Assembly: GCF_004331345.1 (NCBI RefSeq)
Contig: NZ_SJJZ01000002.1
Location: 806,001-870,000, forward strand
DNA length: 64,000 bases
Reading direction: 5' to 3'
Source: Kribbella soli
GTDB lineage: Bacteria; Actinomycetota; Actinomycetes; Propionibacteriales; Kribbellaceae
Under the pieces are notes generated by a model. It saw only the letters and a program-made list of their open reading frames with translations, was not told the DNA's origin and searched no databases. Positions 5,304-26,284 of the stretch are shown one piece after another (the first letter of the stretch is position 1; the number at the start of each line of letters is the position of its first letter). The translations under genes and the position numbers were made by a program.

Positions 5304-5310
5304 CGATCGC

Positions 5311-6216: not shown

Positions 6217-6355
6217 GTCCCTACCTCTCTGTCAGCTCAAGCCTGTCGCCGTCGGTCCCCAAGGAGCAGAGCCACCCAGCCCACGATGTCCCACCACTCG
6301 ACCCGCACTCGCACCTGCCGAACGACCTACTCGACGAGTGATCCGGGCGACACGC

Positions 6356-6378: not shown

Positions 6379-6456
6379 GCGGCGCAGGGACCGAACGGCC
6401 GGTGCGCGCGGCCGCCGAACAGGTGATGCTGGAAGGCGAGGAGCCCTGGAGGTGGC

Positions 6457-7364: not shown

Positions 7365-8678
7365 ATGTCCGAAGACATGGGTGCTGTGGAAGTCGAACTG
7401 CTGGCGATCGGTGCCGGGCCATCGAATCTCGGGCTCGCGGTCGCGCTCGAGGAGCTGGCGCCGGATCTCGCGGCGAACACCCTGCTGATCGACCGGAACC
7501 TGACGATCGAGTGGCAGCCCGGCATGCTGATGCCGTGGGCGACAAGTCAGGTGTCGTTCCTCAAGGACCTGGTCACCCAGCGGGACCCGTGCAGCCGGTT
7601 CTCGTTCCTGAACCACCTGTTCGAGACCGACCGGCTCGACGAGTTCGTCAACATGAGCACGTTCACGCCGTACCGCGTCGAGTTCGCGGAGTACCTGCGC
7701 TGGGTCGCGGACTCACTCACCCGGGTCCGGATCCGACTGGGGTGTGAATGCGTTGCGGTCCGCCCGCAACGCGACGACACCGGAGCCGTCACAGGCTGGG
7801 TCACCAGCCTTGCCGACGGTACGACGATCCTCAGCAGGTACCTGGTGTACGGCGGCAGCCGCGAACCGAACATCCCGCCGGAGCTCTCCGGCGTGTCCCC
7901 GGACCGGATCATCCACAGCACGCAGTACCGCCAAAGGGTGGCCGAGCTCGACGGCGAACTGCCGTACCGAGTCGCCCTGGTCGGCAGCTCGCAGAGCGCC
8001 GCCGAGATGTTCCGCGCACTGCGCGACGACCTGCACGACAGCGACATCACCTGGCTGATGCGGTCCATCGGGCTGAGCTCGGACCAGTCCAGCAAGTTCA
8101 CCAACGAGATGTACTACCCGTCGTTCGTCGACGAGTTCTACGACGCCCGGCCGGCGGCGCGCGAGCAGATCCTCCGGGAGCTGTACCGGACCAACTACTC
8201 CGTCGTCACTCCCCCGATGCTCGAGCACCTGTACGCCGACCTGTACCTCGATCGCTTCGAGGAGCGCACCGATCGGCGGCTCGTCACGATGGTGGACATC
8301 ACGTCCGCCCACGAGGCCGGGGACGAAGTGGTGCTGGAGCTCACCGACCGCCGGACCGGAGCCGTCACCGAACTGCGCCGCGACCTGGTCTTCCTCGGCA
8401 CCGGTTTCGACACCCGGATGCCACGGCTGATCCGCGAGCTCGCGAGCGACCTCGAACTGGAGCACATCGAAGTGTCCCGTGAGTACCGACTAGAGCTGAG
8501 CGAGAACAGCACCGGAGCGTGTTATCTCCAGGGCGTCAACGAGGAGACGCACGGCATCTCCGACTCACTGCTCAGCGTGCTGGCCCAGCGGGCCGAGGAG
8601 ATCTGCCGGGACATCGTCGCGCACCGGGGCCGGATCCCGGCGACGGCTGTATCAGCCGAAGAGCCGGCCGGGCTCTAA
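7365..8678 (+). CDS. L-lysine/L-ornithine N-hydroxylase (SidA/IucD family), copy 1
   Basis: FAD- and NADPH-dependent monooxygenase that hydroxylates the terminal amine of lysine or ornithine. The start at 7365 (MSEDMGAVEVELLAIGAG) follows GGAGGCGAGG; an in-frame upstream ATG at 7308 lacks such a site. Visible motifs are the FAD loop GAGPSNLGLAVAL near the N-terminus, the NADPH loop VALVGSSQSAAEMF in the middle and the C-terminal DLVFLGTGF and CYLQGVNEETHGISDSLLSVL. At 437 aa it has normal family length. It opens the operon containing cupin, MetRS-like and DAO genes. In s56-p1-type pathways the homologous enzyme makes N6-hydroxylysine for N-N bond formation, so lysine is the more likely substrate here (inference). 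Confidence 0.88.
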   Translation: MSEDMGAVEVELLAIGAGPSNLGLAVALEELAPDLAANTLLIDRNLTIEWQPGMLMPWATSQVSFLKDLVTQRDPCSRFSFLNHLFETDRLDEFVNMSTFTPYRVEFAEYLRWVADSLTRVRIRLGCECVAVRPQRDDTGAVTGWVTSLADGTTILSRYLVYGGSREPNIPPELSGVSPDRIIHSTQYRQRVAELDGELPYRVALVGSSQSAAEMFRALRDDLHDSDITWLMRSIGLSSDQSSKFTNEMYYPSFVDEFYDARPAAREQILRELYRTNYSVVTPPMLEHLYADLYLDRFEERTDRRLVTMVDITSAHEAGDEVVLELTDRRTGAVTELRRDLVFLGTGFDTRMPRLIRELASDLELEHIEVSREYRLELSENSTGACYLQGVNEETHGISDSLLSVLAQRAEEICRDIVAHRGRIPATAVSAEEPAGL

Positions 8679-8696
8679 GGGGAGGGACCTGTGCCC

Positions 8697-8732
8697 ATGA
8701 GAAAAGGCCAGCCCGCGAGGAGAACCGGATGA
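8697..8732 (+). CDS. possible 11-codon leader ORF coupled to the PP-loop gene
   Basis: ATG at 8697 opens an 11-residue frame (MRKGQPARRTG) whose TGA overlaps the ATG of the PP-loop gene as ATGA. A GGGGAGGG stretch lies 9-17 bases upstream of it, and a second ribosome site (CGAGGAG) for the PP-loop gene lies inside it. It could be a translational coupler, or chance in a 50-base gap. No function is claimed. Confidence 0.25.
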   Translation: MRKGQPARRTG

Positions 8733-10252
8733 CAACACTCGAACTGGATCGATCCTCGGCCGACGGTGTCGCACAGGCCCGGGAGCGGACGTTCGCCGGG
8801 CTGCGTTCGGCGATGCCGCCCGGCCTGATGGCCGAAGCGCTGCGCTGTAGCGGGCGGCTCCTGGACGAGCTGCCGCACCGGCAGGAGCTGGAGCGCAACC
8901 TCGTCCTGGTGGCCTTCGGCGGCGGCAAGGACAGCGCGTACATGCTGGCCTTCGTCCGGGCGATCCAGCTGATCCTGGACCGCGTCCACGGCCGCACGTT
9001 CCGGATGCGGGTGGCGACCAACCGGCACGCCGGAATGCCGCGCGCCGTGCTGGAAAACATCGACCGCGAGTACCAGGCGCTGGGGCTCACCGACGACCCG
9101 GACTGCGAGCTGCTGCTCGTGGACGGCGACGAGATCAGCGAGTTCGACGTCGACTCCCCGCAGCGCGAACACGTCGTACGGCGTAATCGGCTCGACATCC
9201 TGATGACCGGTCACCGGACGTTCGCCGACGGACGGCCGACGTTCTGCAACTCCTGCAACCTCAGCGTCTTCAACGCCTTCGGGCTGGCGGCGGCGTACGG
9301 CGACGGCGCCGACGTACTCATCACCGGCGACTCACCGCAGGAGCAGCGTCAGTACAGCTTCTGGGTCGGCCGGCTGGCCCAGAAACTGCGCACTGCCCCC
9401 GCGGAACGGCCGCGCGCGAACGGGAACGGATTCGGCCGGATCCTCGGCAGGCTCGACGACATCTCCCAGTCGTACTTCGCCGACATCCACGGCCCGGACG
9501 CGACCGCCGCGATCACCGAGCGCCGGGTCAGCGTGGATGTTCCGGATCGGCTGCGGTTCTTCACCGTCTACGCCGAGACCGACTACGCGGCCGGGGGCCA
9601 CTTCGAGCTGCTGACCGGCTTCCTCGGCTTCCAGTTCGACGACCTCGCGTTCAGCTTCACCGAGTCCGACTGCGCGAACCCGGCGCTGATGGCGCACCTG
9701 CGCGGCCTCAAGGCCGAGCGCCTCTTCCAGCGTTCGTACGACGAGGGTCTGAGCGAGTACGTCGAGTTCGCGCTCGGGCTGATGCGGAAGAAGGACATCC
9801 CGGAGGAACTGGTCGAGATCATGCGTACCCGGTACGACGGCCCGGACGCACCGGTCCGGATGCGGCGGGCCGCCGAGGAGTACGCGCTGACGACCTTCGG
9901 GCTCACCGAGGAGCACCTGGTCTGCATGACCTACTCCCCCTTCGCCGGACAGGGTGCCGGGCTCCAGCAGTTCCTGGATCGCGAGTACCCGGCCCTGTCC
10001 GTGCGGATCAGCGACATCCACAGCCTGCTGGCCGGTCCGGCCGAAGATCCCACGCTGGAAGCCGAACTGGAGCGGATCAGCGGACTCACACCGAGCCAGT
10101 TGCGCGTGCTGTACAGCCGGTCCGTACAGAGCACCGGCGGCGGTACGCCGGTCATCGACCTGATCCTGGCGGGCGATCCGCACAAGGCAGTCATCGAGAC
10201 CCGGCACTCCAAGGACGGTCCGAACACCTTCGAACAGATTTCGGGACGGTAG
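8729..10252 (+). CDS. PP-loop ATPase (adenine nucleotide alpha-hydrolase superfamily)
   Basis: A 507-residue cytoplasmic enzyme. VLVAFGGGKDSAYML at about residues 60-74 is a PP-loop (SGGxDS type) that binds ATP and adenylates a substrate, as in TtcA, TilS and N-acetyl-sugar amidotransferases. A FCNSC pair near residues 171-175, followed by VLITGDSPQEQRQY, recalls members that activate a carbonyl before amide or thio transfer. The family member cannot be named from sequence. It lies between the N-hydroxylase and the cupin, with a 2-base gap to the cupin, so it is surely part of the same operon. A role as an amide- or amidine-forming ligase in the pathway is inference. It is longer than most PP-loop enzymes; the C-terminal 250 residues are unassigned. 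Confidence 0.8.
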   Translation: MTTLELDRSSADGVAQARERTFAGLRSAMPPGLMAEALRCSGRLLDELPHRQELERNLVLVAFGGGKDSAYMLAFVRAIQLILDRVHGRTFRMRVATNRHAGMPRAVLENIDREYQALGLTDDPDCELLLVDGDEISEFDVDSPQREHVVRRNRLDILMTGHRTFADGRPTFCNSCNLSVFNAFGLAAAYGDGADVLITGDSPQEQRQYSFWVGRLAQKLRTAPAERPRANGNGFGRILGRLDDISQSYFADIHGPDATAAITERRVSVDVPDRLRFFTVYAETDYAAGGHFELLTGFLGFQFDDLAFSFTESDCANPALMAHLRGLKAERLFQRSYDEGLSEYVEFALGLMRKKDIPEELVEIMRTRYDGPDAPVRMRRAAEEYALTTFGLTEEHLVCMTYSPFAGQGAGLQQFLDREYPALSVRISDIHSLLAGPAEDPTLEAELERISGLTPSQLRVLYSRSVQSTGGGTPVIDLILAGDPHKAVIETRHSKDGPNTFEQISGR

Positions 10253-10254
10253 CC

Positions 10255-10731
10255 ATGGTCGTACACATCTCCCGGCTGGATCGCGACAACCTGCTGCACG
10301 AATACGGCGTGGACACCCAGCGCCTGCAGCCGTGGCCGGTCCTGAACGCGCCGTTCGAGACCAGCTATGCGGTCTGCCGGGCGGGGACGGTCTCCAAGCT
10401 GCACACGCATCACGAGCAGGAGATCTTCGTCGCCGTCTCCGGGGAGTGCGTGGTCGAGTGCGGCGGTGAGCGGCAGCCCTTCCGGGCCGGCGACGTCGCG
10501 TACTTCACGCCCGGCCAGCTGCACCGGGTGCACAACCTCACCGACGAGGACTTCGTCTTCTGCAGCATCTGGTGGGACCCGGAGATGGCCCACCGGTTCC
10601 TTGCCGAGTACGCCGGATCGGACACCGAGACGTTCGCCGCCGAGGCCGCCGCGAACGCCGACGAGAACGCCCGGGCCGCCGAGGCCGTTGAGAACGCCGA
10701 GACCGCCGAGCGAGTAGGAGCCAGCCAATGA
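10255..10731 (+). CDS. cupin protein (split hydrazine-synthetase cupin component)
   Basis: A 158-residue cupin. Metal-ligand candidates are HTHHEQE at about residues 51-57 and the histidines in GQLHRVH near 88-92, matching the two cupin motifs. The C-terminal 35 residues are an Ala/Glu-rich low-complexity tail. Its stop overlaps the MetRS-like start as ATGA, so the proteins are made in coupled, probably equal amounts. In hydrazine synthetases such as Spb40 a cupin domain is fused in front of a MetRS-like domain, and the cupin carries out the N-N bond-forming rearrangement. Here the same order is kept as two genes. Function by context is inference. Confidence 0.85.
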   Translation: MVVHISRLDRDNLLHEYGVDTQRLQPWPVLNAPFETSYAVCRAGTVSKLHTHHEQEIFVAVSGECVVECGGERQPFRAGDVAYFTPGQLHRVHNLTDEDFVFCSIWWDPEMAHRFLAEYAGSDTETFAAEAAANADENARAAEAVENAETAERVGASQ

Positions 10732-12368
10732 CCCAACTGCTGCCGTCCGACGACAACCGTCCCGTCCTCGTCCTCGGTCCGAACCCGACCCCGAACGGCG
10801 GCATGCACCTCGGCCACATCGCCGGGCCGTACCTGGCCGGCGACGTCTACGCCCGGTACCAGCGGGCCCGCGGCCGGAACGTCATCTTCACCTCGGAAAC
10901 CGACGACAGCCAGACGTATGTGGTGGCATCGGCGGGCCGGGCGGGCATCACGCCCGAGGAGTTGTGCAAGCAGTCGACCGCGAAGATCCAGTCGGCGCTG
11001 AGCGCGACCGGCATCTCGATCGACGGGTTCGGCCCGTTCGACCAGACCTACCGCGCCACCGTGCTGCAGTACTTCAGCGCCTTGCACTCCGCCGGCGTGT
11101 TCCGGCTGAAGACCGTCCGGTTGCCATACCTGGAACGGACCGGCGAGTTCATGGTCGAGGGCCTGATCGAGGGCGACTGCCCGGTCTGCCTGACCAGCAG
11201 CCGCGGCGGCCTGTGCGAAACCTGCTGCCACCCGAACAACTTCGACCAGCTGATCAACCCGCATTCGACGATCAACCCCGACGACAAGCTCACCTACCGC
11301 GAGGCCACCATCATGGTGCTGCCGCTGGAGGAGTACCGCGCGCAACTGACGGCGTACCACGACAAGCTGGCGGCGCACCGGCGGCCACACGTCCGGCAGA
11401 TGATCGCCGAGCTGCTGTCCCGGCCGTTGCAGGACGTGCCGATCACGTTCCCGCTGAACTGGGGTATCGATGCCCAGTTCCCGGAGGTCCCGGGGCAGGT
11501 GCTGAACGCCTGGCTCGAACTGATCCCGGCCGGCATGTTCACCACGTCGTACGCCGCCGCGAAACTCGGCCGCGACACCGTGCCCGGCGAGCTGTGGCGC
11601 AAGGCCGAGAACCTGCGGATCGTCCACTTCCTCGGCTTCGACAACGCCTACTACTTCTGCCTTCCGCACATCGCGATGCTGATGGCGCACGGCGACAAGT
11701 ACGTCTGGCCGGAGTCGATCATCAACAACGAGTTCTACGAGCTGGAGAGCTCGAAGTTCTCCACCAGCAAGGGACACGTGCTGACCCCCGAGGAGCTGCT
11801 CGAGGAGGTGCCGCGCGATATTGCCCGGCTGTACCTGGCGCTGACGGCACCGGAGTACCAGCGGTCCACCTTCAGCCGGTCGGGACTCGACACGATGGCC
11901 GAGGAGCGGCTGGTCGGCCCGTGGAACCAGCTGGCCGGCATCCTCGCCAAAGCCGTGGCGAACGCCGGCGGCGACAGCAGTCGGCTACCGGTCTCGGACG
12001 CGGGACGGCAGCGCGTGGCACTGATGCTCGAGCGGTTCGACCTCGGCTACGAGATGCCGACGTTCAACCTGAACCGTTCGGCGGACACCGTGCTGGTCCA
12101 GATCGACCGGTTGCGACGACAGGCGACGGCCCTCGACGGCTGCGGTCTCGACGAGCAGCCCGGGGCCTGGGGCGACCTGTTCTGCGAGGTCAAGGCGCTG
12201 CTCGCACTGGCCTCGCCGATCCTCATCGACCTGGCCGCCGCGGCCCGCGACGCCGGCGTTTTCGACGACTCGCCAGAGTCCGGAACCCTGGTCGCCGGAG
12301 CTTTCGACGCCACCGAGGTCACCCCGTTCGCGCCTCCGTTGCTGGCGGCCGACGTGGCCGTCGGGTGA
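10728..12368 (+). CDS. methionyl-tRNA synthetase-like protein (split hydrazine-synthetase component)
   Basis: A 546-residue class I aminoacyl-tRNA-synthetase homologue. NPTPNGGMHLGH places the HIGH motif at residues 27-30, a four-Cys zinc knuckle (CPVC...CETC) lies near 151-167, and KFSTSK near 343-349 stands in for KMSKS. The gene overlaps the cupin by four bases and is followed after 6 bases by the DAO gene. In characterised hydrazine synthetases the MetRS-like part uses ATP to join an amino acid (glycine or glutamate) to N-hydroxylysine as an ester that the cupin rearranges to a hydrazine. I infer that role; a second housekeeping MetRS is much less likely given the context. Confidence 0.88.
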   Translation: MTQLLPSDDNRPVLVLGPNPTPNGGMHLGHIAGPYLAGDVYARYQRARGRNVIFTSETDDSQTYVVASAGRAGITPEELCKQSTAKIQSALSATGISIDGFGPFDQTYRATVLQYFSALHSAGVFRLKTVRLPYLERTGEFMVEGLIEGDCPVCLTSSRGGLCETCCHPNNFDQLINPHSTINPDDKLTYREATIMVLPLEEYRAQLTAYHDKLAAHRRPHVRQMIAELLSRPLQDVPITFPLNWGIDAQFPEVPGQVLNAWLELIPAGMFTTSYAAAKLGRDTVPGELWRKAENLRIVHFLGFDNAYYFCLPHIAMLMAHGDKYVWPESIINNEFYELESSKFSTSKGHVLTPEELLEEVPRDIARLYLALTAPEYQRSTFSRSGLDTMAEERLVGPWNQLAGILAKAVANAGGDSSRLPVSDAGRQRVALMLERFDLGYEMPTFNLNRSADTVLVQIDRLRRQATALDGCGLDEQPGAWGDLFCEVKALLALASPILIDLAAAARDAGVFDDSPESGTLVAGAFDATEVTPFAPPLLAADVAVG

Positions 12369-12374
12369 TCCCAG

Positions 12375-13508
12375 ATGCGCATCACCGTGGTCGGTGGTGG
12401 CGTCGTCGGCCTGCTCACCGCCGTCGAGTGTGTTCGCGCGCCCGGCGTGACCCGGGTCGAGCTCGTCGACGCCGGTCCGATTCCGTCACCGATGGCCACC
12501 TCGAACGACCGGCTCCGGGTGGTCCGGGCCCTGCATCGCGGCGAACCGGCGCTGACGTCGGCGGCAGCCCGAGCGCACGCCGGCTGGTTGGAGGTCGAGA
12601 GCCTGATCGGCTCGCGGTTCTATCACCCGTCCGGTGCGCTCACTGCGATGCCGGACCAGAACGTTGCGGCGACGCTCGCCGTCCTCACCGCGGCAGGTGC
12701 GAGAGCCTGGGGACTCTCGCAGATCGACCTGGCCGGGCGGTATCCGTGGATCCGGTTCCCGCCCGGGTCCGGAGCCGTGCTGGAGGCGACAGCCGGCGTC
12801 GTCCTCGCCGACCAGGCGCTGGTCGCGGTGGCGCGTTGGCTCGGCAGCCAGCCGCAGGTTCGGCTGCACCCGCACCAGCAGGTCGTCGAGGTGACCCAGC
12901 ATGACCAGGGCGGAATGATCCGGTTCGCTGACAGCACGACTCGTACCGCCGACCGGGTGGTCGTGGCCGCTGGGCCATGGTCCCGCGAGCTGGTGCCGGC
13001 CGCCGTCGCCTCCGATCTGACGTTGTACCGGCAGAGCGTGCTGTCGTACCGGCCGCAGTCGGCCGGAATGCCTGCGGTCCTCGGGCTCGGTCCGGCAGGC
13101 GACGCCTGGTTGATGTCGGCGCCGGCGCATTCGGACGCTTCGTTGCGGCTGAGCGCGGCCAGCGCCTGCCGGCCGGCCGCAGCGATGACCGACCCGGTCA
13201 CCCCCGATCGCTGGCGCGAACACCTCATCAGCGTTTTCACCGGGGTGCTCCCGGGCTTCGATCCGGCGGCGGTGGTCAACTGCTTCGACGGCTTCTACCT
13301 GTCCGAGCGGACCCGTGGCGGGCCGCTACTGGCGTCGTACGGCGCGGGCGCGGTCTGGGCGTACGCCGCGTGCGGCGGAATGTCCTTCAAGTTCGCACCG
13401 CAGATCGCCCGCGCGATTGCCGATCGCGCTGTCGGCGCGACCCCGCGCCCGACCGGCCTGGACTCGGTCGACCGGCCGCGATTCCTCGCCGCGGCCGGGA
13501 AGGAGTAG
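12375..13508 (+). CDS. FAD-dependent D-amino-acid-oxidase family oxidoreductase
   Basis: A 377-residue flavoenzyme of the DAO/glycine-oxidase fold. The N-terminus is a dinucleotide-binding loop (ITVVGGGVVGLLTAVE), and VVVAAGPWSRELVP in the middle and a C-terminal AYAACGGMSFKFAPQIA are typical of the family. It starts 6 bases after the MetRS-like gene. In the s56-p1 pathway a homologous enzyme (Spb39) oxidatively cleaves the hydrazine-linked lysine intermediate and releases hydrazinoacetic acid. The same step is proposed here from gene order and family, not from direct evidence of substrate. Confidence 0.88.
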   Translation: MRITVVGGGVVGLLTAVECVRAPGVTRVELVDAGPIPSPMATSNDRLRVVRALHRGEPALTSAAARAHAGWLEVESLIGSRFYHPSGALTAMPDQNVAATLAVLTAAGARAWGLSQIDLAGRYPWIRFPPGSGAVLEATAGVVLADQALVAVARWLGSQPQVRLHPHQQVVEVTQHDQGGMIRFADSTTRTADRVVVAAGPWSRELVPAAVASDLTLYRQSVLSYRPQSAGMPAVLGLGPAGDAWLMSAPAHSDASLRLSAASACRPAAAMTDPVTPDRWREHLISVFTGVLPGFDPAAVVNCFDGFYLSERTRGGPLLASYGAGAVWAYAACGGMSFKFAPQIARAIADRAVGATPRPTGLDSVDRPRFLAAAGKE

Positions 13509-13514: not shown

Positions 13515-14771
13515 GTGAAGCTACTTGCCCTCGAAGCCGTCCAGAACGCCCGCTACTACCAGTCCCGCTACCGCCAGATCGAGGAGTTCGGCGGCACTCT
13601 GTTCGTTCTCAACGGGCTCGGTGAACCCGGTTACTGGCCGGACGCGCAGTACCGGATCGCCGGCTCCAGGCACATCGACGACATCATCGCGACCGCCCGC
13701 GCGTGGCATGCGCACGAGCGGTTCGACGGCGTGCTCACCTTCTCGGAGTCCGGCGTACTCACGGTTGCCGCGGTGGCCGACGCCCTCGGCCTGCCCGGAG
13801 TCGGCCTGGACGCCGCGCGGATCAGCCGGAACAAGCTGCTGATGCGCGAGGCCCAGTTGCGCGGTGGCGCACCGGTCCCCCGCTTCCGGCTCGCAGCCGA
13901 CGTCACCGCCGCGCTCGCGGCCGCGGACGAGTTCGGCTACCCGATCATCCTCAAGCCGACTTTAGGTGCCGCGAGCAACTTCGTGTTCAGGATCGACGAC
14001 CCTGACGAGCTGCGGTCCCGGTTCCCGCAGGCGCTCGAGGGGATGGCGGCGATGTCCTGGTTCCAGATGGAGGCCGACGGAATCGACCTCGGCCCGAACG
14101 GACTGCTGGTCGAGTCCTTCCTGGACGGCCGGGAACTGCAGATCGAGGCGCTCGCCTGGGACGACGAGGTGTACCTCGGCTCGATCGTGGACCGGATCAC
14201 GGTCGAGGGCAGCACGTTCGACGACGACGCCCACCGGGCGCCGACGACCCTCGACGCCGGAGAGCTGGCCGCTGTCCACGAGGTCGTGGCGACGGCCGCC
14301 CACGCGCAAGGTCTGCGGCGCAGCGTGATGCACGCCGAGGTCCGTTTCCACCAAGGCCGGCCGCACCTGCTGGAGATCGCCGTCCGCCCCGGCGGCGGCG
14401 GGCTGGACTACTTCGCCCGGCTGAGCGCCGGCTACTGCCCGATCCGCGCCACGATGGCCGTCGCCGCCGGAACGAAGCCCGACGTGCACCACTACCGGCC
14501 GACCGGCGTGCATCTGGCCGGTACCTGCCTGATCGGCGGGCCCGGCCGGGTCGAACAGATCACCGTGCCGCCCGCGGTGGCCGGGTCCGACCGGGTGTTC
14601 TTCCTGAAGATCACGGCCAAGCCCGGCGACGTGATCCGCCGCCCGCCGGACGGCAACAACATCCTCGGCTTCCTCTGTACCAGCGGGTCGACGTTCGACG
14701 AGGCGATCCGGACGGCGTACGAGTTCGCCGGGCAGATCGACGTACGCCTGACGGCAGCTACCCGCGCCTGA
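13515..14771 (+). CDS. ATP-grasp carboxylate-amine ligase 1
   Basis: A 418-residue ATP-grasp enzyme that should join a carboxylate to an amine through an acyl phosphate. The GTG at 13515 follows AAGGAGTAGAG. PIILKPTLGAASN near residue 142 is the nucleotide-binding lysine strand, and a later EVRFHQGRPHLLEIAVRPGGGG carries the metal-binding Glu and catalytic Asn/Arg-type region (here IAVRPGG in place of the usual IN-x-R). This motif layout is that of BacD/L-amino-acid-ligase-like and carnosine-synthase-like proteins. It lies 6 bases after the DAO gene, so the hydrazine product is its most likely substrate (inference). Confidence 0.85.
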   Translation: MKLLALEAVQNARYYQSRYRQIEEFGGTLFVLNGLGEPGYWPDAQYRIAGSRHIDDIIATARAWHAHERFDGVLTFSESGVLTVAAVADALGLPGVGLDAARISRNKLLMREAQLRGGAPVPRFRLAADVTAALAAADEFGYPIILKPTLGAASNFVFRIDDPDELRSRFPQALEGMAAMSWFQMEADGIDLGPNGLLVESFLDGRELQIEALAWDDEVYLGSIVDRITVEGSTFDDDAHRAPTTLDAGELAAVHEVVATAAHAQGLRRSVMHAEVRFHQGRPHLLEIAVRPGGGGLDYFARLSAGYCPIRATMAVAAGTKPDVHHYRPTGVHLAGTCLIGGPGRVEQITVPPAVAGSDRVFFLKITAKPGDVIRRPPDGNNILGFLCTSGSTFDEAIRTAYEFAGQIDVRLTAATRA

Positions 14772-18081: not shown

Positions 18082-19383
18082 ATGAGCGAAGAAGTCGACC
18101 GCGAACCGGGTTCGGCCGAGCGGCCAGGCGAAGGCCTGGGTGCCATCGCTACCTGGCGCCAGACGTCGATCACGTCGAAGGCGCTGCTGTTCGGAGTTTT
18201 CGTCAACCGGCTGGGCGCCTTCCTGCAGATCTTCCTGGTGCTGTTCATGACGCACCGCGGGTTCTCGGCCGGCCAGGCAGGTTTCGCGCTCGGCATCTAC
18301 GGCGCCGGCCATGTGCTGGGGGCGTTCGTCGGCGGCTGGCTGACCGACCGGCTGAGTGCCCGGGCGGCGACGTTGATCAGCATGCTCGGCTCGGCCGCGC
18401 TGATCGTCTCCATCCTCTACATCAACGTGTACTGGGTGATCCTGCTGGCGATCATCACGGTCAGCACCGTCAGCCAGCTGAACCGGCCGGCCGCGCAGGC
18501 GATGCTGGCCGAGCTGACCAAGCCGGGTCAGCTCGTGATGACGATGGCGATGTACCGGCTGGCCATCAACCTGGGCACCGCGGTCACTCCGATCGTCGGC
18601 GTCGCGCTGGTGTCGGTCTCGTACAACCTGCTGTTCTGGGCCGAGGCGTTCGCCGCCGTGGTCTACAGCGCGATCGCCTGGAAGTTCCTGCCCGGGAAGG
18701 CCGCACCGGACGAGGCCGCGAGCGCGGCCAAGGCCGCGGAGCCGAAGCAGGGCTACCGTGCGGTGCTGGCGGACTGGCGGTACGACTTCTACCTGGCCGC
18801 CGTGTTCCTGGTGACGATCGTCTACTGCCAGTACATCGCGGTGCTGCCGCTCGCGATCGTGAACGACGGCCTCAGCCTGTGGTGGTACAGCCTGATCGTC
18901 TCGGCGAACGCCATCGTCGTCGCGGTCTGCGAGGTCCCGGCGACCAAGTACGTGCAGACCTGGCCACTACGCCTGACCGCGATCGCAGGATTCGGTCTGG
19001 TCGCGGTCGGCTACGGGGTCTACGCGATCGCACTGGTCCCGGTGCTGCTGATCATCGGCACGCTGATCTGGACGATGTCGGAGATCATCGGCGCACCCAC
19101 CACGTTCGCCTACCCGGGCATGGTCGCGCCACCGCATCTGCGGGGCCGGTACTCCGGCGCCATGCTGAGCGTGTTCGGTCTCGGAAACGCGGTCGGTCCG
19201 GCGGTCGGCGTCTGGCTCTGGGAACAGATCGGCCAGACCTTCTGGCTGTGGGCGGCGGGAGTGGCCGTCCTCTCCGCCGTCTGCGCCCGGATCGGAATGC
19301 GCCGGCCAGACGAGGCGCCGGCCGATGCGGCGACTTCTGAGGCTGAGGCGGCGCCGGGCGCCAACCCCGAAGCGGCGACCTGA
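18082..19383 (+). CDS. MFS transporter, probable product exporter
   Basis: A 433-residue multi-pass membrane protein of the major facilitator superfamily. FVGGWLTDRLSARAA is the loop 2-3 signature (GxLaDrxGrr type), and TMAMYRLAINLGTAVTPIVG is the glycine/proline-bearing helix 5 seen in drug exporters. Hydrophobic segments run through most of the protein, with a charged Ala/Glu/Lys-rich central loop and a polar Ala/Glu C-terminal tail. It lies inside the biosynthetic cluster, divergent from the P450 gene, and ends at a strong terminator. Export of the product and self-protection is the natural reading. Confidence 0.85.
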   Translation: MSEEVDREPGSAERPGEGLGAIATWRQTSITSKALLFGVFVNRLGAFLQIFLVLFMTHRGFSAGQAGFALGIYGAGHVLGAFVGGWLTDRLSARAATLISMLGSAALIVSILYINVYWVILLAIITVSTVSQLNRPAAQAMLAELTKPGQLVMTMAMYRLAINLGTAVTPIVGVALVSVSYNLLFWAEAFAAVVYSAIAWKFLPGKAAPDEAASAAKAAEPKQGYRAVLADWRYDFYLAAVFLVTIVYCQYIAVLPLAIVNDGLSLWWYSLIVSANAIVVAVCEVPATKYVQTWPLRLTAIAGFGLVAVGYGVYAIALVPVLLIIGTLIWTMSEIIGAPTTFAYPGMVAPPHLRGRYSGAMLSVFGLGNAVGPAVGVWLWEQIGQTFWLWAAGVAVLSAVCARIGMRRPDEAPADAATSEAEAAPGANPEAAT

Positions 19384-20972: not shown

Positions 20973-21857
20973 ATGGAACTCATCTCCGAGGTCGGTACGC
21001 CGACCAACGCCACCGCCGACGTACCGTCCGACGCCGCGATCCGGCGGAGCACTCACCGCCGGTACCTGATGTGCCCGCCCACCCACTTCGACGTCACCTA
21101 CTCGATCAACCCGTGGATGAATCCCGCCAAGCCGACCGATCAGCCGATCGCGGCGGCGCAGTGGCAGCGGATCCACGACCAGCTGGTCGACCTCGGGCAC
21201 ACCGTGGACGTGATCCCACCGGTGCCCGGGTTGCCGGACATGGTGTTCGCCGCGAACGGCGCCACCGTCTGGGGCGACCGTGCGCTCGTCGCCCGTTTCC
21301 GCCACGTCGAGCGGGACGCGGAGTCGGCGTCGTACCTGGAATGGTTCGCCAGTCGCGGTCTGCACGTCCAGCAGGCCTCGACGGCGAACGAGGGCGAAGG
21401 CGACTACCTGACCGCCGGGTCCTGGTTGCTGGCCGGCAGCGGGTTCCGCACCGACCGCCGGGCGCACCTCGAGAGTGAGCTGTACTTCGACCGCCCGGTG
21501 ATCGGCCTGACCCTCGTCGACGACCGGTACTACCACCTGGACACCGCACTGGCCGTGCTGGACGACGAGACCGTCATGTACTACCCGGGCGCCTTCACCC
21601 CGGGGAGTCAGGCGATCCTGCGCGAACTCTTCCCGTCCGCGATCATCGCAACCGCCGAAGACGCCGGTGTGTTCGCCCTGAACGCGGTCTCCGACGGCCT
21701 GCATGTCCTGATGCCGGCGGGTTCCACCAACCTGGTCGCGAAGCTGCGGGAGGCGGGCTTCGTCCCGATCGGCATGGATGTCTCCGAACTCCTGCGGGCC
21801 GGTGGCGGGGTGAAGTGCTGCACGTTGGAGCTGCACGGCCCGGCAGGTGGCCGATGA
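20973..21857 (+). CDS. amidinotransferase/dimethylargininase (DDAH) family enzyme
   Basis: A 294-residue guanidine-modifying enzyme. The catalytic set is complete: Cys282 in GGGVKCCTLEL, His near 188 in YYHLDTALAV, and the acidic pair in NEGEGD near residues 138-143. It has the family opening RYLMCPPTHFDVTYSINPWM. DDAH enzymes hydrolyse N-omega-methylated arginine to citrulline; relatives act on arginine or transfer amidino groups. No clear ribosome site precedes the ATG at 20973. It overlaps the next gene by 4 bases. In this pathway it may supply citrulline/ornithine or process a guanidine or hydroxyguanidine, which is inference. Confidence 0.85.
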   Translation: MELISEVGTPTNATADVPSDAAIRRSTHRRYLMCPPTHFDVTYSINPWMNPAKPTDQPIAAAQWQRIHDQLVDLGHTVDVIPPVPGLPDMVFAANGATVWGDRALVARFRHVERDAESASYLEWFASRGLHVQQASTANEGEGDYLTAGSWLLAGSGFRTDRRAHLESELYFDRPVIGLTLVDDRYYHLDTALAVLDDETVMYYPGAFTPGSQAILRELFPSAIIATAEDAGVFALNAVSDGLHVLMPAGSTNLVAKLREAGFVPIGMDVSELLRAGGGVKCCTLELHGPAGGR

Positions 21858-22195
21858 TCGACTACGACGGCAGGAGGTTCTCCCCCGCCGGACACCACTC
21901 GGAAAGCCATGACGTCACCGTCGCGTCGTACCGGCAGCGCGGCGACCTGCTGTGGGCCGACTTCAGCGGTGGTCGCGTCCGGCGTGGTGCGCTCACCGGC
22001 GTATGCCGGCCGGACGACACACTGGAGTTCAGCTACAGCATGGTGCTCGCCGACGGCGCAGTGGTCGCAGGGCACTGCGAGAGCACACCTGAGTTCCTGC
22101 CAGACGGCCGGATCCGGTTGCACGAACGCTGGGAGCGGTACGGTCCGCAGGCCGCTACCGGCGTGTCCGAGCTCGATGAGATCGCCTCCGGCTGA
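21854..22195 (+). CDS. small lipocalin-like protein of the so-called N-acetylglutamate-synthase family
   Basis: A 113-residue protein starting in an ATGA overlap with the DDAH-like gene. MIDYDGRRFSPAGHHSE, a DLLWADFSGGRVRRGALTGVC strand pair and the end STPEFLPDGRIRLHERWERYG match a family of about 110-residue bacterial proteins often labelled N-acetylglutamate synthase, although they lack a GNAT fold and look all-beta. That label is doubtful. It is probably a small-ligand-binding accessory protein of the pathway. Translation coupled to the DDAH-like gene suggests they act together. Confidence 0.7.
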   Translation: MIDYDGRRFSPAGHHSESHDVTVASYRQRGDLLWADFSGGRVRRGALTGVCRPDDTLEFSYSMVLADGAVVAGHCESTPEFLPDGRIRLHERWERYGPQAATGVSELDEIASG

Positions 22196-22240: not shown

Positions 22241-22693
22241 ATGAATCACGCCGCGGGCAAGGAGGTCAGCGCCGACGGCTTGTCCGTGGTGCTGACCAGC
22301 GTGTCGTCGGACTCGCACACCTGGAATCTGGTCGTCCTGCAACTGGTTCTCGAGGAGCTCGGCCATCAGGTGCACAACCTCGGCGCCTGCGTTCCGGACG
22401 AGCTGATGGTCTCCGAGTGTCTGCGGCTGCGGCCGGATCTCGTCGTGGTCAGCAGTGTCAACGGTCACGGCTTCCACGACGGCCTGCGGCTGATCCGTCA
22501 GGTACGGAGCCACGCGGAACTGGCCGGCACTCCGATGGTGATCGGCGGGAAGCTCGGGATCGCCGGGCCGGGCTGCGACCGCAGCCGGGCCCAACTGACA
22601 GCGGCAGGGTACGGCGCGGTCTTCGAGGACGGCACCGGCCTCACCGCCTTCCAGTCGTACGTCGGCAGGCTCGCCATCGGCCAGGCTTCGTGA
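22241..22693 (+). CDS. glutamate mutase small (B12-binding) subunit GlmS-like
   Basis: A 150-residue cobalamin-binding protein, partner of GlmE. The B12 motif is DSHTWN (family DxHxxG: the cobalt-ligating His is kept, the Gly is Asn), followed by VVVSSVNGHG (for SSLYGHG) and VIGGKLGI (for the GG motif). With GlmE it should convert L-glutamate to (2S,3S)-3-methylaspartate by an adenosylcobalamin radical. It ends in a GTGA overlap with the glmE-like gene. Such pairs provide methylaspartate or its decarboxylation product in several natural-product pathways. No MutL-type reactivase gene is seen. Confidence 0.85.
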   Translation: MNHAAGKEVSADGLSVVLTSVSSDSHTWNLVVLQLVLEELGHQVHNLGACVPDELMVSECLRLRPDLVVVSSVNGHGFHDGLRLIRQVRSHAELAGTPMVIGGKLGIAGPGCDRSRAQLTAAGYGAVFEDGTGLTAFQSYVGRLAIGQAS

Positions 22694-24045
22694 GCGTCCC
22701 GGATACCGGCTCGTTCGGTGACTTCGTCGCCCGGGCGCACCGATCGGGCAAGCTCGTGGTGCAACCGCGGATGGGTGTCAGCGATCCCGCCGCGATGCGC
22801 GCCGGGCTCCTGGCCACCCGGAAAGCGGCGGCGACCGCGGTCGGCACGATCACGCTCGACAGCTACACCCGGATGGGTGACAACGCGAACGCGCGCGCCG
22901 CGCTCGCGGCCGGAATCGAGCTCAACGGGTACCCCATCGTCGCGCACGACCCGGCCGTCACCCGATCGGTGCTGGACGGTGTCGCCGGGCCTGACTTCCC
23001 CGTGCAGATCCGGCACGGTTCGCCCTGCCCCGAGCCGATCGTGGCCGCGCTGATCCAGGCCGGACTGCACGCGACCGAGGGCGGGCCGGTCTCCTACTGC
23101 CTGCCCTACAGCCGGATGCCGCTGGAGGACTCGATCCCGAACTGGGCCCGCAGCTGTGACCTGCTGGCGGAGCTCAGATCGACCGGGGCCGAACCGCACG
23201 TCGAAAGCTTCGGCGGCTGCATGATGGGTCAGCTCTGCCCGCCCGGCCTCCTGGTCGCGTTGAGCGTGCTCGAGTGCCTGTTCTTCCGGCAGCACGGAAT
23301 CCGCAGCGTCTCTTTGAGCTACGCACAGCAGACCAACTCGGATCAGGACACGGAAGCGCTGCTGGCGTTGCGCCGGCTGGCCACGCACTGGTTGCCGGAC
23401 GTCGACTGGCACATCGTCGTCTACACCTACATGGGTGTGTATCCGCGGACGCCTGCCGGTGCCGCCGGGCTCCTGGAGGAAGCGGCCCGGCTGGCGGTCC
23501 GGGCCGGCGCGGCCCGGCTGATCGTGAAGACGGTTGCCGAGGGCTACCGAATTCCCACGTTCGCCGAGAACATCGCCGCCCTCGAGACCGCGGCGCTGGC
23601 CGCCGAAGGGTGCCTCACGATCGCCGGCGATGCCGTCGACACCGGCATCCACGCCGAGGCCAGCGCCTTGATCGAGGCGGTGCTCGACCTCGGTCCGGAT
23701 CTCGGCGCGGCACTGGCCACCGCGTTCCGGCGCGGCTACCTCGACGTGCCGTACTGCCTGCATCCGGACAACGCCGGCCGGGCCCGCAGCTACCTCGACA
23801 GCACCGGCCGGCTGCAGTGGTTGTCGATCGGGTCGTTGCCGATCCGCGGTGTGGTCGGCCCGACCGACTCCGCGAAGCTGACGGCGGCCGGGCTGCTGGC
23901 CTCGCTGTCGTACGTGGAACGGACCTTCGACAACGCGAGCCTCGAGCAGGAGTTTCACGCCGTATCGGACCACTCATCAGGGAGCACAGATGACCGAGAC
24001 CCGGATCCCGGAAACCGAAGCCCGGCTGCCCGCCAGTCCGCGTGA
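22690..24045 (+). CDS. glutamate mutase catalytic subunit GlmE-like
   Basis: A 451-residue TIM-barrel subunit. By hand alignment, the residues that grip the substrate in Clostridium GlmE are all kept: Arg27 (QPR, for R66), Arg61 (SYTR, for R100), Arg108 (RHG, for R149), Glu130 (EGG, for E171) and Tyr140 (for Y181). Activity on glutamate or a close analogue is therefore likely. The N-terminus is about 39 residues shorter than in Clostridium. The GTG at 22690 overlaps the glmS-like stop. Its 3' end overlaps the AsnRS-like gene by 56 bases, so the last 19 residues, which are low-complexity, share DNA with that gene. Confidence 0.88.
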   Translation: MSVPDTGSFGDFVARAHRSGKLVVQPRMGVSDPAAMRAGLLATRKAAATAVGTITLDSYTRMGDNANARAALAAGIELNGYPIVAHDPAVTRSVLDGVAGPDFPVQIRHGSPCPEPIVAALIQAGLHATEGGPVSYCLPYSRMPLEDSIPNWARSCDLLAELRSTGAEPHVESFGGCMMGQLCPPGLLVALSVLECLFFRQHGIRSVSLSYAQQTNSDQDTEALLALRRLATHWLPDVDWHIVVYTYMGVYPRTPAGAAGLLEEAARLAVRAGAARLIVKTVAEGYRIPTFAENIAALETAALAAEGCLTIAGDAVDTGIHAEASALIEAVLDLGPDLGAALATAFRRGYLDVPYCLHPDNAGRARSYLDSTGRLQWLSIGSLPIRGVVGPTDSAKLTAAGLLASLSYVERTFDNASLEQEFHAVSDHSSGSTDDRDPDPGNRSPAARQSA

Positions 24046-24997
24046 GCACCTCACCTCACCCGTCACCCGGTCGGTCCTCAGGATCCAGCACCGGATGCTC
24101 ACCGCGGCCCGCGAGCTTCTCGGCGCCCGCGGGTTCATCGAGTTGCTGCCGCCGGTGATCGGCCCGGTCACCGACCCAGGCGCGCGCGGGGCCAAGCAGG
24201 TCGACGTGGACTACTACGGGCACCGCTACAAACTGATGACGAGCGCGATCCTCTACAAGCAGGCCGCGCTGACCTCGTTCGACAAGATCTTCTTCATCGC
24301 GCCGAACATCCGGCTGGAACCGCTCGAGACCGCGTCGACGAGCAGGCACCTGGCCGAGTTCCACCAGATCGATATCGAGATCGCGGACGCGTCCCGGGAC
24401 GACGCCATGGCGATCGCGGAGGATCTCGTCCGTCACGTCGTACAGCAGGTGGTCGCGGAACTCCCCCACGAGTTCGAGGCCCTCGGCCGGGACACCTCCG
24501 GGTTCGCCGAGTTGATCGGTACGCCGTTCGGGCGCCGGACGCACGCCGACGCGGTCGCCGACCTGCGGGCGACGGGTCACGACCAGAACCCGGATGCCGA
24601 GCTCGACTGGGTGGGCGAGGCGAAGTTGTCGGCGAAGGCGAGCAGACCGTTCTTCGTCACCGACTACCCGAAGGGATCGCGCGGCTTCTACGACCGGGAG
24701 GACAAGGACCGGCCGGGCATGCTGCGGAACTTCGATCTGATCGCCGCCGAGGGGTACGGCGAGCTGTGCAGCGGCAGCGAGCGCGAGCAGGACTACGCCA
24801 CGATCATCTCGCGGATGCGGGAGACGGCGGAGAACCCCGCGAAGTACGCGTGGTACCTGCAGATGCTGAAGGACGGCGTACCGCCGAGCGCCGGTTTCGG
24901 CCTCGGCCTCGAGCGGTTCACCCGGTACGTCGCCGGGCTGGACTCGGTCTGGCAGGCCAGCGCGTTCCCGAAGGTGCCCGGCATCGCTTCGCCCTGA
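23990..24997 (+). CDS. AsnRS-like class II synthetase core (asparagine-synthetase type)
   Basis: A 335-residue class II aminoacyl-tRNA-synthetase catalytic core related to AspRS/AsnRS, without the N-terminal anticodon-binding OB domain. Motif 2 region IRLEPLETASTSRHLAEFHQ and motif 3 GFGLGLER (about 303-310) are clear; GSEREQDYATIISRM matches the AsnRS core. In archaea such an OB-less AsnRS paralogue makes asparagine from aspartate (AS-AR). Position inside the glmE-like 3' end suggests the substrate is the mutase product, giving a 3-methylasparagine or a related amide/hydrazide. That is inference. It is unlikely to charge tRNA. Confidence 0.85.
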   Translation: MTETRIPETEARLPASPREHLTSPVTRSVLRIQHRMLTAARELLGARGFIELLPPVIGPVTDPGARGAKQVDVDYYGHRYKLMTSAILYKQAALTSFDKIFFIAPNIRLEPLETASTSRHLAEFHQIDIEIADASRDDAMAIAEDLVRHVVQQVVAELPHEFEALGRDTSGFAELIGTPFGRRTHADAVADLRATGHDQNPDAELDWVGEAKLSAKASRPFFVTDYPKGSRGFYDREDKDRPGMLRNFDLIAAEGYGELCSGSEREQDYATIISRMRETAENPAKYAWYLQMLKDGVPPSAGFGLGLERFTRYVAGLDSVWQASAFPKVPGIASP

Positions 24998-25015: not shown

Positions 25016-26284
25016 ATGTCGCACGTGACAGAAACCGGTCGGCTGAGTCTCGCGCAAGGTACGGCGTTGTACATCGGAGCCGTACTGGCGACGGGTGTCA
25101 TCGCGCTGCCGGCACTCGCCGCCGAGGTGGCAGGCCCCGCGTCGTTGCTGGCCTGGTTGGGCCTGGCAGTGGTATCCGCTCCGCTGGCAGCCACCTTCGC
25201 CGCGCTCGGTGCGCGCTATCCGGATTCGGGTGGCATCGCGACGTACGCGCGACTGGCCTTCGGCGAGCGGGCAGCGGCGATCGTCGGCTGGTGCTTCTAC
25301 CTTTCCGTCCCGGTCGGCGGTCCCGCCGCCGCACTGTGGGCAGGTGGGTACGTCGAAGCAGCGCTGGGCGGCGGACGGGGCGTCGTCTTCGCAACCATGC
25401 TGGCGCTCCTGGCGGTCGTGCCGGCTGCCAACGCCTTCGGTATCGAGGTGACCGGACGGGTCCAGATCGGCCTCGCCGGGCTGCTGACGCTCTTCCTGGG
25501 CCTCGCGGTCGCGCTCTCGCTGCCGCACGCCGACCTGTCCAACCTGCAGCCTTTCGCACCGCACGGTTGGCAGGCGATCGGCCCTGCCGCCGCGCTCCTG
25601 GTCTGGAGCTTCGTCGGCTGGGAAACGGTCACCTACCTCACCGCCGAGTTCCGCCACCCGGCCCGCGACGTACCGCGGGCAACTGCGATCGCGGTGATCG
25701 TGGTCGGCGTGATCTACCTCAGTGTCGCCTTCGCCACCATCACGGTGCTGGGCCCGCGGGCCGCCGACACCGACGCGCCACTCGGCGATCTACTAGCGAT
25801 CGGCCTTGGCGGTAACGCCCGGGTGCTGGCCGCGGCGGCCGCCCTCCTCCTCACCTTCGGTGCGATGAACGCGTACTACGCGGGCGCGTCCAAGCTCGGC
25901 GCCGCCCTGGCCCGCGACGGCGCTCTGCCCGCCTGGCTGTCCCGTGGCAGCTCTGCGGGCGTGGTCCCACGCCGCAGTCTCGCCGTGCTGAGCGTGCTGT
26001 CGATGGTGACTGCCGTGATCGTGGTGGTGGCAGGACTCGAGCCGCAGTCGCTGGTCCTGCTCACCACTGGGCTGTTCGTGACCGTGTACGCCGTCGGCGT
26101 CGCCGCGGCAGTCAAGTTGCTGCCGCGACGCAGCCGCGCGCGTCTCGCCGCGCTCGTCGCGCAGGGAGCCGTCGTGGTCCTGCTCCTGATGGCCGGGGTC
26201 TACCTGCTCTGGCCGGCGCTCGTCAGCGTGGCGGCGCTGCTCTACCTGAAGCTGTCGCGCCCACGGGTTCAGCGACGTCCGTAG
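25016..26284 (+). CDS. APC-family amino acid permease/exporter
   Basis: A 422-residue membrane protein of the amino acid-polyamine-organocation superfamily, similar in layout to YjeH-type methionine/branched-chain exporters. TALYIGAVLATGVIALPALA carries the unwound helix 1 with the GxG-type substrate loop, and ARYPDSGGIATYARLAFG is the family's loop 2-3. About ten to twelve hydrophobic stretches fill the rest. It starts 18 bases after the AsnRS-like gene, in the same operon. It may export or import an amino-acid-like pathway compound. GTG at 25025 is an alternative start. Its 3' end overlaps the opposite-strand protease gene by 16 bases. Confidence 0.8.
   Translation: MSHVTETGRLSLAQGTALYIGAVLATGVIALPALAAEVAGPASLLAWLGLAVVSAPLAATFAALGARYPDSGGIATYARLAFGERAAAIVGWCFYLSVPVGGPAAALWAGGYVEAALGGGRGVVFATMLALLAVVPAANAFGIEVTGRVQIGLAGLLTLFLGLAVALSLPHADLSNLQPFAPHGWQAIGPAAALLVWSFVGWETVTYLTAEFRHPARDVPRATAIAVIVVGVIYLSVAFATITVLGPRAADTDAPLGDLLAIGLGGNARVLAAAAALLLTFGAMNAYYAGASKLGAALARDGALPAWLSRGSSAGVVPRRSLAVLSVLSMVTAVIVVVAGLEPQSLVLLTTGLFVTVYAVGVAAAVKLLPRRSRARLAALVAQGAVVVLLLMAGVYLLWPALVSVAALLYLKLSRPRVQRRP

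What the first reader, a model, noticed from the sequence alone, without database searches (positions are those of the whole stretch)
7365..13508. Hydrazine-forming cassette: N-hydroxylase, cupin, MetRS-like and DAO genes in one operon
The order N-hydroxylase, (PP-loop), cupin, MetRS-like, DAO is the recipe known from s56-p1 (Spb38/Spb40/Spb39) and related triacsin and pyrazomycin-type pathways: N6-hydroxylysine is joined to an amino acid, rearranged to an N-N bond and oxidatively cut to a hydrazino acid. All catalytic motifs are present, including HLGH, a zinc knuckle, cupin histidines and flavin loops. The whole cluster around it matches no named compound I can recall.
Basis: partly seen in the sequence, partly recalled or inferred. 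Interest (0 to 1): 0.85.

Follow-up and report, generated by a model that had tools for sequence, protein, structure and literature searches.

The report
Kribbella hydrazine-forming biosynthetic gene cluster
A soil actinobacterium (Kribbella) and several distant relatives carry a 22-gene set whose core joins two nitrogen atoms by a known enzyme chemistry, but in a gene company (an amino-acid-making cassette, two amino-acid ligases, two N-hydroxylases and a binding protein that lacks its export signal) that I could match to no described compound.

Summary
Confirmed: 7365-13508 is a tight operon of N-hydroxylase, PP-loop protein, cupin, MetRS-like protein and DAO. The MetRS-like protein is not the genome's housekeeping MetG. 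It groups with cupin-linked MetRS-like proteins, and the cupin has the PyrN catalytic tetrad at identical positions (H50, H52, E56, H90). This is a two-protein cupin/MetRS-like hydrazine synthetase, a known family; split members are known too.

Not supported: that it repeats the s56-p1 recipe. The N-hydroxylase and DAO are remote from the azaserine-type (Spb38/39-like) sets (DAO 21% identity). The MetRS-like pocket has neither the bulky plugs of the glycine type nor the two arginines of the glutamate type. N6-hydroxylysine, glycine and glutamate are all unproven.

The real unit is larger (about 7.3-34.7 kb), syntenic in the 8 of 38 Kribbella genomes that have it, and recurs rearranged in Actinocrispum, Kibdelosporangium and MAGs. 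It adds two ATP-grasp ligases, a second N-hydroxylase, a glutamate-mutase/AsnA/GltB-like cassette (elsewhere beside NRPSs), DDAH, P450 and a signal-less substrate-binding protein; Deinococcus and Pantoea relatives have an unrelated binding protein in that slot. Best reading: a hydrazine-containing small peptide of unknown structure; a new variant of a known kind.

The parts
7365..8678 (+). NMO1, flavin-dependent N-hydroxylase (Lys_Orn_oxgnase); substrate unknown (diamino acid or diamine inferred)
   Evidence: PF13434 1.4e-82; histamine N-monooxygenase model hit but far under its cut-off (148 of 700 bits); tree
8729..10252 (+). PP-loop (N-type ATP-pyrophosphatase) protein, invariant GGGKDS loop and Cys173/Cys176; likely amide/hydrazide/amidine-forming ligase (inferred)
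   Evidence: no Pfam; alignment A2; AF2 model pLDDT 67; VIA Z about 10 to amidotransferase, GMP synthetase, NAD synthetase folds
10255..10731 (+). stand-alone cupin, hydrazine-forming; H50, H52, E56, H90 as in PyrN
   Evidence: PMC8664883
10728..12368 (+). MetRS-like protein, tRNA-independent aminoacyl-ester synthetase (inferred); HLGH and KFSTSKG intact, one zinc knuckle
   Evidence: PF09334 1.3e-64, tree, pocket
12375..13508 (+). DAO-type FAD oxidase, inferred C-N cleavage of the hydrazine
   Evidence: PF01266 3e-24; 21% identity to azaserine-cluster DAO, 46% to BHT-5-2, 35% to Deinococcus
13515..14771 (+). ATP-grasp L-amino acid ligase 1
   Evidence: PF13535 2e-16 and LAL_C2 1.6e-13; conserved in L054, L055, L056
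14788..16587 (+). family 5 solute-binding protein without signal peptide
   Evidence: PF00496 2e-39; no lipobox or hydrophobic stretch in 9 of 9 orthologues, against most of 20 other SBP_5 proteins of this genome
16646..17917 (-). cytochrome P450
   Evidence: PF00067 7.9e-37
18082..19383 (+). MFS transporter
   Evidence: PF07690
19432..20925 (-). protein without Pfam family; faint circularly permuted ATP-grasp signal
   Evidence: PF14403 E 0.002, under cut-off; AF2 model unusable, pLDDT 34
20973..21857 (+). DDAH (dimethylargininase, M. tuberculosis type)
   Evidence: NF045659 426.8 bits, cut-off 300
21815..22195 (+). small conserved protein of 126 aa, travels with DDAH
22241..22693 (+). GlmS-like B12-binding subunit (motif DSHTWN in place of DxHxxG)
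   Evidence: PF02310 1.2e-12; translation
22690..24045 (+). GlmE/MutE-like glutamate mutase catalytic subunit
   Evidence: PF06368 8.3e-88; TIGR01503 172 bits, cut-off 390 not met
23990..24997 (+). AsnA-type asparagine synthetase (class II aaRS paralogue)
   Evidence: NF005052 476.6 bits, cut-off 368
25016..26284 (+). amino acid permease
   Evidence: PF13520
26269..27303 (-). matrixin-like metalloprotease; seen in the cluster only in Kribbella
   Evidence: PF00413 2.2e-5
27372..28694 (+). FMN Glu_synthase-domain protein (GltB-like, no glutaminase domain)
   Evidence: PF01645 1.3e-22
29767..31050 (+). ATP-grasp ligase 2
   Evidence: PF13535, LAL_C2; start chosen
31073..32416 (+). NMO2, second N-hydroxylase, 61% identical to NMO1
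   Evidence: PF13434 1e-82
32423..33886 (+). CPA2-type cation/proton antiporter
   Evidence: PF00999
33998..34666 (+). ECF sigma factor, conserved end of the cluster
   Evidence: PF04542

Best explanation
A biosynthetic gene cluster whose core is a two-protein cupin/MetRS-like hydrazine synthetase. Proposed course: (1) NMO1 hydroxylates the side-chain amine of a diamino acid or diamine; (2) the MetRS-like protein adenylates a second amino acid and passes it to the hydroxylamine oxygen as an unstable ester; (3) the zinc cupin rearranges the ester, breaking N-O and making N-N; (4) the DAO-type oxidase cuts one C-N bond to free a hydrazino acid; (5) the two ATP-grasp ligases couple it to other amino acids, one of them probably made by the GlmS/GlmE/AsnA/GltB cassette (a 3-methylaspartate- or 3-methylasparagine-like unit), giving a small hydrazine-containing peptide; (6) PP-loop protein, P450 and NMO2 tailor, the signal-less binding protein holds product or intermediate inside the cell, MFS exports. 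Steps 1-3 rest on homology, residue and gene-order tests here plus published biochemistry of the family; steps 4-6 are inference.
For: Cupin tetrad identical to PyrN (H50, H52, E56, H90; PMC8664883); the cupin matches RHS1 (5UQP, 5.9e-9) and, much better, the cupins 4RD7 and 4MV2. MetRS-like protein clearly apart from own MetG and other MetGs, inside a supported clade of MetRS-like proteins each next to a cupin and an N-hydroxylase gene (Streptomyces BHT-5-2, Deinococcus, Pantoea, Klebsiella). Whole gene order kept in 8 Kribbella genomes; the PP-loop/cupin/MetRS-like/DAO block kept in five non-Kribbella relatives, three of them with NMO1 directly upstream. Stand-alone pairs are active enzymes (RHS1 pair, PMC8664883). 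ATP-grasp 1 follows the DAO in L013, L014, L017, L018 and L055. The Glm/AsnA/GltB cassette is found by an AsnA search in five other actinobacteria as a four-gene unit, mostly next to NRPS-like genes, without hydrazine genes, which fits a building-block supplier.
Against: No product is known. Substrates cannot be read: the MetRS-like pocket fits neither anchor and the N-hydroxylase clade has no characterised member here. No DAO was seen next to two related clusters (L086, L093), so C-N cleavage may not be universal in the clade. The GlmS motif is DSHTWN rather than DxHxxG and GlmE fails the TIGR01503 cut-off, so glutamate as the mutase substrate is uncertain. In Actinocrispum L016 no ATP-grasp ligase lies beside the core.
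Confidence: 0.8

Rival explanations
1. A straight s56-p1/azaserine-type pathway: N6-hydroxylysine plus glycine gives hydrazinoacetic acid.
For: Same gene kinds (NMO, DAO, cupin, MetRS-like); azaserine-type set seen in L061 for comparison.
Against: The glycine-type anchors carry W, Y and F at window pocket positions 260, 267 and 269; here N, P and G. NMO clade distant and DAO 21% identical. None of the azaserine follow-up genes (GNAT, carrier proteins, C45 peptidase) is here.
Confidence: 0.1
2. A glutamate-type pathway as in pyrazomycin or the Rhodococcus RHS1 cluster.
For: Stand-alone cupin and MetRS-like genes in R. jostii as here (L059); Asn19 shared with the RHS1 partner.
Against: The two pocket arginines of the R. 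jostii protein (aligned with window 268 and 310, also in Rahnella and M. amorphae) are Ala and Phe here; DAO instead of a saccharopine-dehydrogenase homologue; long branch apart in both trees.
Confidence: 0.05
3. The MetRS-like/cupin pair makes an ester, hydroxamate or other N-O compound and no N-N bond, and the cluster yields a hydroxamate peptide.
For: Two N-hydroxylases; in PyrN, loss of cupin activity leaves an N-acyl hydroxylamine shunt product (PMC8664883); cupins can do other chemistry.
Against: The tetrad, including the Glu essential for N-N formation, is invariant in all 11 orthologues; Zhao et al. report this Glu as invariant in the cupins they investigated (PMC8664883).
Confidence: 0.08
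4. Variant of the best explanation at step 4: the DAO acts like Apy10 and frees a side-chain hydrazine of the diamino acid rather than an alpha-hydrazino acid.
For: The DAO is remote from the azaserine/Spb39 type, and Apy10 shows that this family can cut either side (PMC11705231).
Against: No Apy10 sequence was available here to compare; nothing positive points to it.
Confidence: 0.3

Closest known systems
Stand-alone cupin and MetRS-like hydrazine synthetases: Rhodococcus jostii RHS1 pair; Afn8/Afn9 (albofungin); Dpn5/Dpn6
   Same: Two separate proteins; for R. jostii also the adenylation motifs, a matching cupin and a linked N-hydroxylase
   Different: The R. jostii MetRS-like protein has two pocket arginines and is 29% identical; cluster content differs; Afn and Dpn sequences could not be compared here
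Spb38/Spb39/Spb40 (s56-p1), Tri26-28, AzsL-N (azaserine)
   Same: N-hydroxylase, DAO-type oxidase, cupin plus MetRS-like module
   Different: Fused synthetase there; different N-hydroxylase and DAO lineages and a different pocket (against azaserine-type anchors); carrier-protein chemistry downstream instead of ATP-grasp ligases
MtRS-paralogue neighbourhoods of Aravind, de Souza and Iyer 2010 (PMC2922099)
   Same: They already list cupin, lysine monooxygenase, ATP-grasp, a PP-loop ATPase related to asparagine synthetase, dimethylargininase and periplasmic-binding-type proteins near this MetRS paralogue
   Different: No glutamate mutase or Kribbella appears in the main text (term search), nor the AsnA/GltB cassette, the paired N-hydroxylases or the missing signal peptide in the part of section 7 read; its supplement was not read
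Streptomyces sp. BHT-5-2 plasmid cluster (L054) and Actinocrispum cluster L093
   Same: NMO, cupin, MetRS-like, ATP-grasp 1 and 2, DDAH, 126-aa protein, SBP_5, antiporter
   Different: No Glm/AsnA/GltB cassette, no PP-loop protein, one N-hydroxylase; no DAO seen beside L093

Membership tests
cupin/MetRS-like hydrazine synthetase | Zinc cupin with H/D-x-H-x3-E ... H tetrad incl. essential Glu | tested here: met
   H50, H52, E56, H90 in 11 of 11 orthologues, same numbers as PyrN (PMC8664883)
cupin/MetRS-like hydrazine synthetase | MetRS paralogue with intact HIGH and KMSKS-like motifs, distinct from housekeeping MetRS | tested here: met
   HLGH, KFSTSKG; tree with own MetG
cupin/MetRS-like hydrazine synthetase | Cupin fused or adjacent, N-hydroxylase linked | tested here: met
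cupin/MetRS-like hydrazine synthetase | ATP-dependent, tRNA-independent N-N bond formation | not testable with these tools
   Needs enzyme assay
s56-p1/azaserine-type hydrazinoacetate pathway | Glycine-type MetRS-like pocket | tested here: not met
   W260/Y267/F269 of the anchors are N/P/G here; the anchor's glycine use is itself inferred from its azaserine-like cluster (L061)
s56-p1/azaserine-type hydrazinoacetate pathway | Spb39/AzsM-type DAO and lysine N6-hydroxylase lineage | tested here: not met
   DAO 21% identity; N-hydroxylase on a separate long branch; Spb sequences themselves not available
PyrN/RHS1 glutamate type | Pocket arginines in the MetRS-like protein (seen in the R. jostii protein; my reading, not a published criterion) | tested here: not met
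   R. jostii protein R at aligned 268 and 310; here A and F
housekeeping methionyl-tRNA synthetase | Groups with MetG; meets MetG model cut-offs | tested here: not met
   All NCBIfam metG models far under cut-off (e.g. 215 of 587 bits); tree; a separate MetG exists
glutamate mutase (GlmS/GlmE) | DxHxxG cobalamin motif in the small subunit | tested here: not met
   DSHTWN: Asp and His kept, Gly replaced by Asn; function may persist, the His ligand being present
glutamate mutase (GlmS/GlmE) | Catalytic subunit family | tested here: inconclusive
   PF06368 295 bits over cut-off; TIGR01503 172 bits under 390
asparagine synthetase A (AsnA) | NCBIfam equivalog cut-off | tested here: met
   NF005052 476.6 of 368 bits

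The most novel reading that the evidence does not exclude
The synthetase couples an amino acid not yet known for this family (for instance the branched product of the Glm/AsnA/GltB cassette, or another polar residue), and the cluster makes a new class of hydrazine peptide in which a solute-binding protein kept in the cytosol serves as carrier or self-protection; two unrelated binding-protein families were recruited to the same slot in different phyla.
Probability: 0.3. Interest if true: 0.75.

Novelty: new variant of a known kind. Interest (0 to 1): 0.52.

Why it matters
Hydrazine-forming enzymes are rare and sought after as catalysts. This cluster gives a defined, widely shared and apparently undescribed pathway with a synthetase pocket unlike the glycine and glutamate types, so it may add a new substrate. 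It also offers a compact four-gene cassette for a branched amino acid that recurs next to NRPS-like genes, and a testable oddity: solute-binding proteins that lack an export signal and sit in a biosynthetic operon. If real, the last point would say something general about how producers handle reactive N-N compounds.

Tried and rejected
(1) Housekeeping MetG: rejected by tree and by the separate MetG. (2) Glycine or glutamate as partner: disfavoured by pocket comparison; anchors for the serine, alanine and tyrosine types were not available, so I do not name the substrate. (3) Fold of 19432-20925: AlphaFold model unusable, pLDDT 34; only a faint CP_ATPgrasp signal. (4) PP-loop protein: Foldseek had no hit under 1e-3; VIA gives Z about 10 to several N-type PP-loop enzymes, class only, not function. 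(5) Direct comparison with Spb38-40, Tri26-28, PyrL-N, Apy9-11: sequences not in reach; azaserine-like clusters (L061, L062, L067) and R. jostii (L059) were used instead. (6) Matsuda 2024 phylogeny paper not held under the DOI I tried. (7) Sigma-70-type promoter scan found nothing; the terminator scan found fewer sites than its shuffled controls. (9) Literature for a glutamate-mutase plus hydrazine cluster, or Kribbella plus hydrazine: no match.
Full report
WHAT IS THERE. The window lies in a genome of 8.8 Mb in 10 contigs (G000); the nearest named relatives are Kribbella. Gene calling by codon-position composition and Pfam/NCBIfam scans confirm the five genes of the finding at the stated coordinates. 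They form one tight run, 50, 2, -4, 6 and 6 bp apart, that goes on into an ATP-grasp ligase and a solute-binding protein (to 16587).

IS IT A HYDRAZINE SYNTHETASE? The published family consists of a zinc cupin and a MetRS-like part, fused or separate. The MetRS-like part makes an unstable aminoacyl ester of an N-hydroxylated amine and the cupin rearranges it to N-N (Zhao et al. 2021, PMC8664883; review PMC11705231). In PyrN the cupin residues are H50, H52, E56 and H90; E56A is dead. The window cupin has H50, H52, E56 and H90 at the very same numbers, and all 11 orthologues keep them. RHS1 (5UQP), the crystallised family cupin, is matched at 5.9e-9; two structural-genomics cupins, 4RD7 and 4MV2, are matched at 3e-31 and 3e-23. 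The MetRS-like protein keeps HLGH and KFSTSKG and one zinc knuckle. The tree puts it far from the genome's own MetG (532 aa) and from other MetGs, in a fully supported clade with MetRS-like proteins of Streptomyces BHT-5-2, Deinococcus ficus, Pantoea and Klebsiella, every one of them next to a cupin and an N-hydroxylase. Long branches (R. jostii, MetG) make the deep order unsure, but not the membership of this clade.

IS IT THE s56-p1 RECIPE? Only in outline. Named anchors were found by tblastn on plasmids. pSA3239 of S. lavendulae (L061) carries a gene set in the order of the azaserine cluster described in PMC10445470, so its synthetase should be glycine-type. The R. jostii pRHL1 protein (L059) is taken as the standalone MetRS-like partner of RHS1, shown in PMC8664883 to work with glutamate (identified here by organism and by linked cupin and N-hydroxylase; the record has no annotation). 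In the substrate pocket, mapped by alignment to MetRS, the azaserine-type proteins have W260, Y267 and F269, the R. jostii-type proteins have two arginines (268, 310), and the Kribbella clade has N260, P267, A268, G269, F310. So neither glycine nor glutamate is expected. This is a reading of an alignment, not a structure. The N-hydroxylases form their own clade, away from the azaserine and RHS ones, and the DAO is 21% identical to the azaserine DAO. Lysine as substrate and the side of C-N cleavage are open; Apy10 is a precedent for the other side (PMC11705231).

THE REAL UNIT. Ten loci with MetRS-like proteins 68-96% identical were fetched (an eleventh match at 28% is a distant Rahnella gene). 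The protein is present in 8 of 38 genomes of the genus, the window's own included, and in all 8 the 22 genes from NMO1 to the ECF sigma factor are in the same order, as far as the fetched pieces reach (in the G025 pieces the metalloprotease gave no separate match). The same set, rearranged and in parts incomplete at contig ends, occurs in Kibdelosporangium banguiense, Actinocrispum wychmicini, two Micromonosporaceae MAGs and an Actinomycetota MAG. NMO1 and NMO2 are separate branches in this set, so the duplication is old; two or more copies of this N-hydroxylase type were found in each of the five non-Kribbella genomes searched. Streptomyces BHT-5-2 and a second Actinocrispum locus (L093) show a simpler core with ATP-grasp 1 and 2, DDAH, the 126-aa protein, SBP_5 and antiporter but no Glm cassette and no PP-loop protein.

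THE CASSETTE. GlmS-like, GlmE-like, AsnA and a GltB-like FMN protein stay close together wherever they were found complete; in Kribbella the permease and the protease lie between AsnA and GltB. A search with AsnA alone in 395 genomes of the class found five more copies, each as the four-gene unit, none with hydrazine genes in the 9-37 kb read around it, and with NRPS-like proteins (by eye on the translations) in four of the five neighbourhoods; the fifth, L106, has only a large reading frame on the other strand. A second Kibdelosporangium locus (L086) has the cassette beside a different hydrazine core. I infer a supplier of an unusual amino acid, most simply 3-methylaspartate amidated to 3-methylasparagine; the role of the GltB-like protein is unknown. 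Caution: the cobalamin motif is DSHTWN and GlmE misses the TIGR01503 cut-off.

THE BINDING PROTEIN. The SBP_5 protein has no signal peptide in any of 9 orthologues, and the in-frame upstream extension is 12 residues. Of 20 other SBP_5 loci of the same genome, 12 passed a lipobox-plus-hydrophobicity rule and several more show a lipobox or a hydrophobic stretch alone (automatic ORF choice, so approximate). In Deinococcus and Pantoea the slot after ATP-grasp 1 holds an unrelated binding-protein family (Peripla_BP_6), also apparently without export signal (the Deinococcus protein's first 60 residues reach a hydrophobicity of 1.58, so this one is less sure). Aravind et al. 2010 noted periplasmic-binding-type proteins near this MetRS paralogue. 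A cytosolic carrier or protective role is my inference only.

PP-LOOP PROTEIN. No Pfam family; invariant GGGKDS; AlphaFold pLDDT 67; VIA Z about 10 to FAD synthase, N-acetyl sugar amidotransferase, GMP and NAD synthetases and asparagine synthetase. Class: N-type PP-loop ATP pyrophosphatase; function by analogy amide, hydrazide or amidine formation. The asparagine-synthase-like Afn14 of albofungin is a hydrazine transferase (PMC11705231), a useful precedent.

VERDICT. Observation confirmed; interpretation partly supported. Known enzyme family, new variant of pathway, product unknown. Interest 0.52.

Noticed in passing
L086:8051-20000 (Kibdelosporangium banguiense, G436:C1 about 7228000-7240000): A second, different hydrazine cluster in the same genome: ATP-grasp, NMO, cupin, MetRS-like (48%), MFS, SBP_5, then the GlmS/GlmE/AsnA/GltB cassette; no DAO, no PP-loop protein beside it.
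   Followed up: partly
L093 (Actinocrispum, G434:C3:300000-319999): A second hydrazine core of the BHT-5-2 kind in a genome that also has the Kribbella-type cluster.
   Followed up: partly
L061 (pSA3239) and L062 (pSmeSM11b): Azaserine-like clusters on a Streptomyces linear plasmid and, in a related form, on a conjugative Sinorhizobium plasmid.
   Followed up: no
L056, L057: Plasmid-borne NMO/cupin/MetRS-like sets in Pantoea ananatis and Klebsiella variicola; the Pantoea one continues with an FAD oxidoreductase, MFS, ATP-grasp and a signal-less Peripla_BP_6 protein.
   Followed up: partly
PDB 4RD7, 4MV2/4Q29: Structural-genomics cupins closer to this cupin (3e-31, 3e-23) than RHS1 is; they may be structures of this clade's hydrazine-forming cupin.
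   Followed up: no
L100, L102, L103-L104, L105, L106-L107: Four-gene GlmS/GlmE/AsnA/GltB cassette in other actinobacteria, mostly beside NRPS-like genes.
   Followed up: partly
window 26269-27303: A matrixin-like metalloprotease on the opposite strand inside the cluster, conserved there in Kribbella but not seen in the other families.
   Followed up: no
window 3-7239: NarG-like nitrate reductase chain, NarK-like transporter and universal stress proteins upstream of the cluster (by eye).
   Followed up: no
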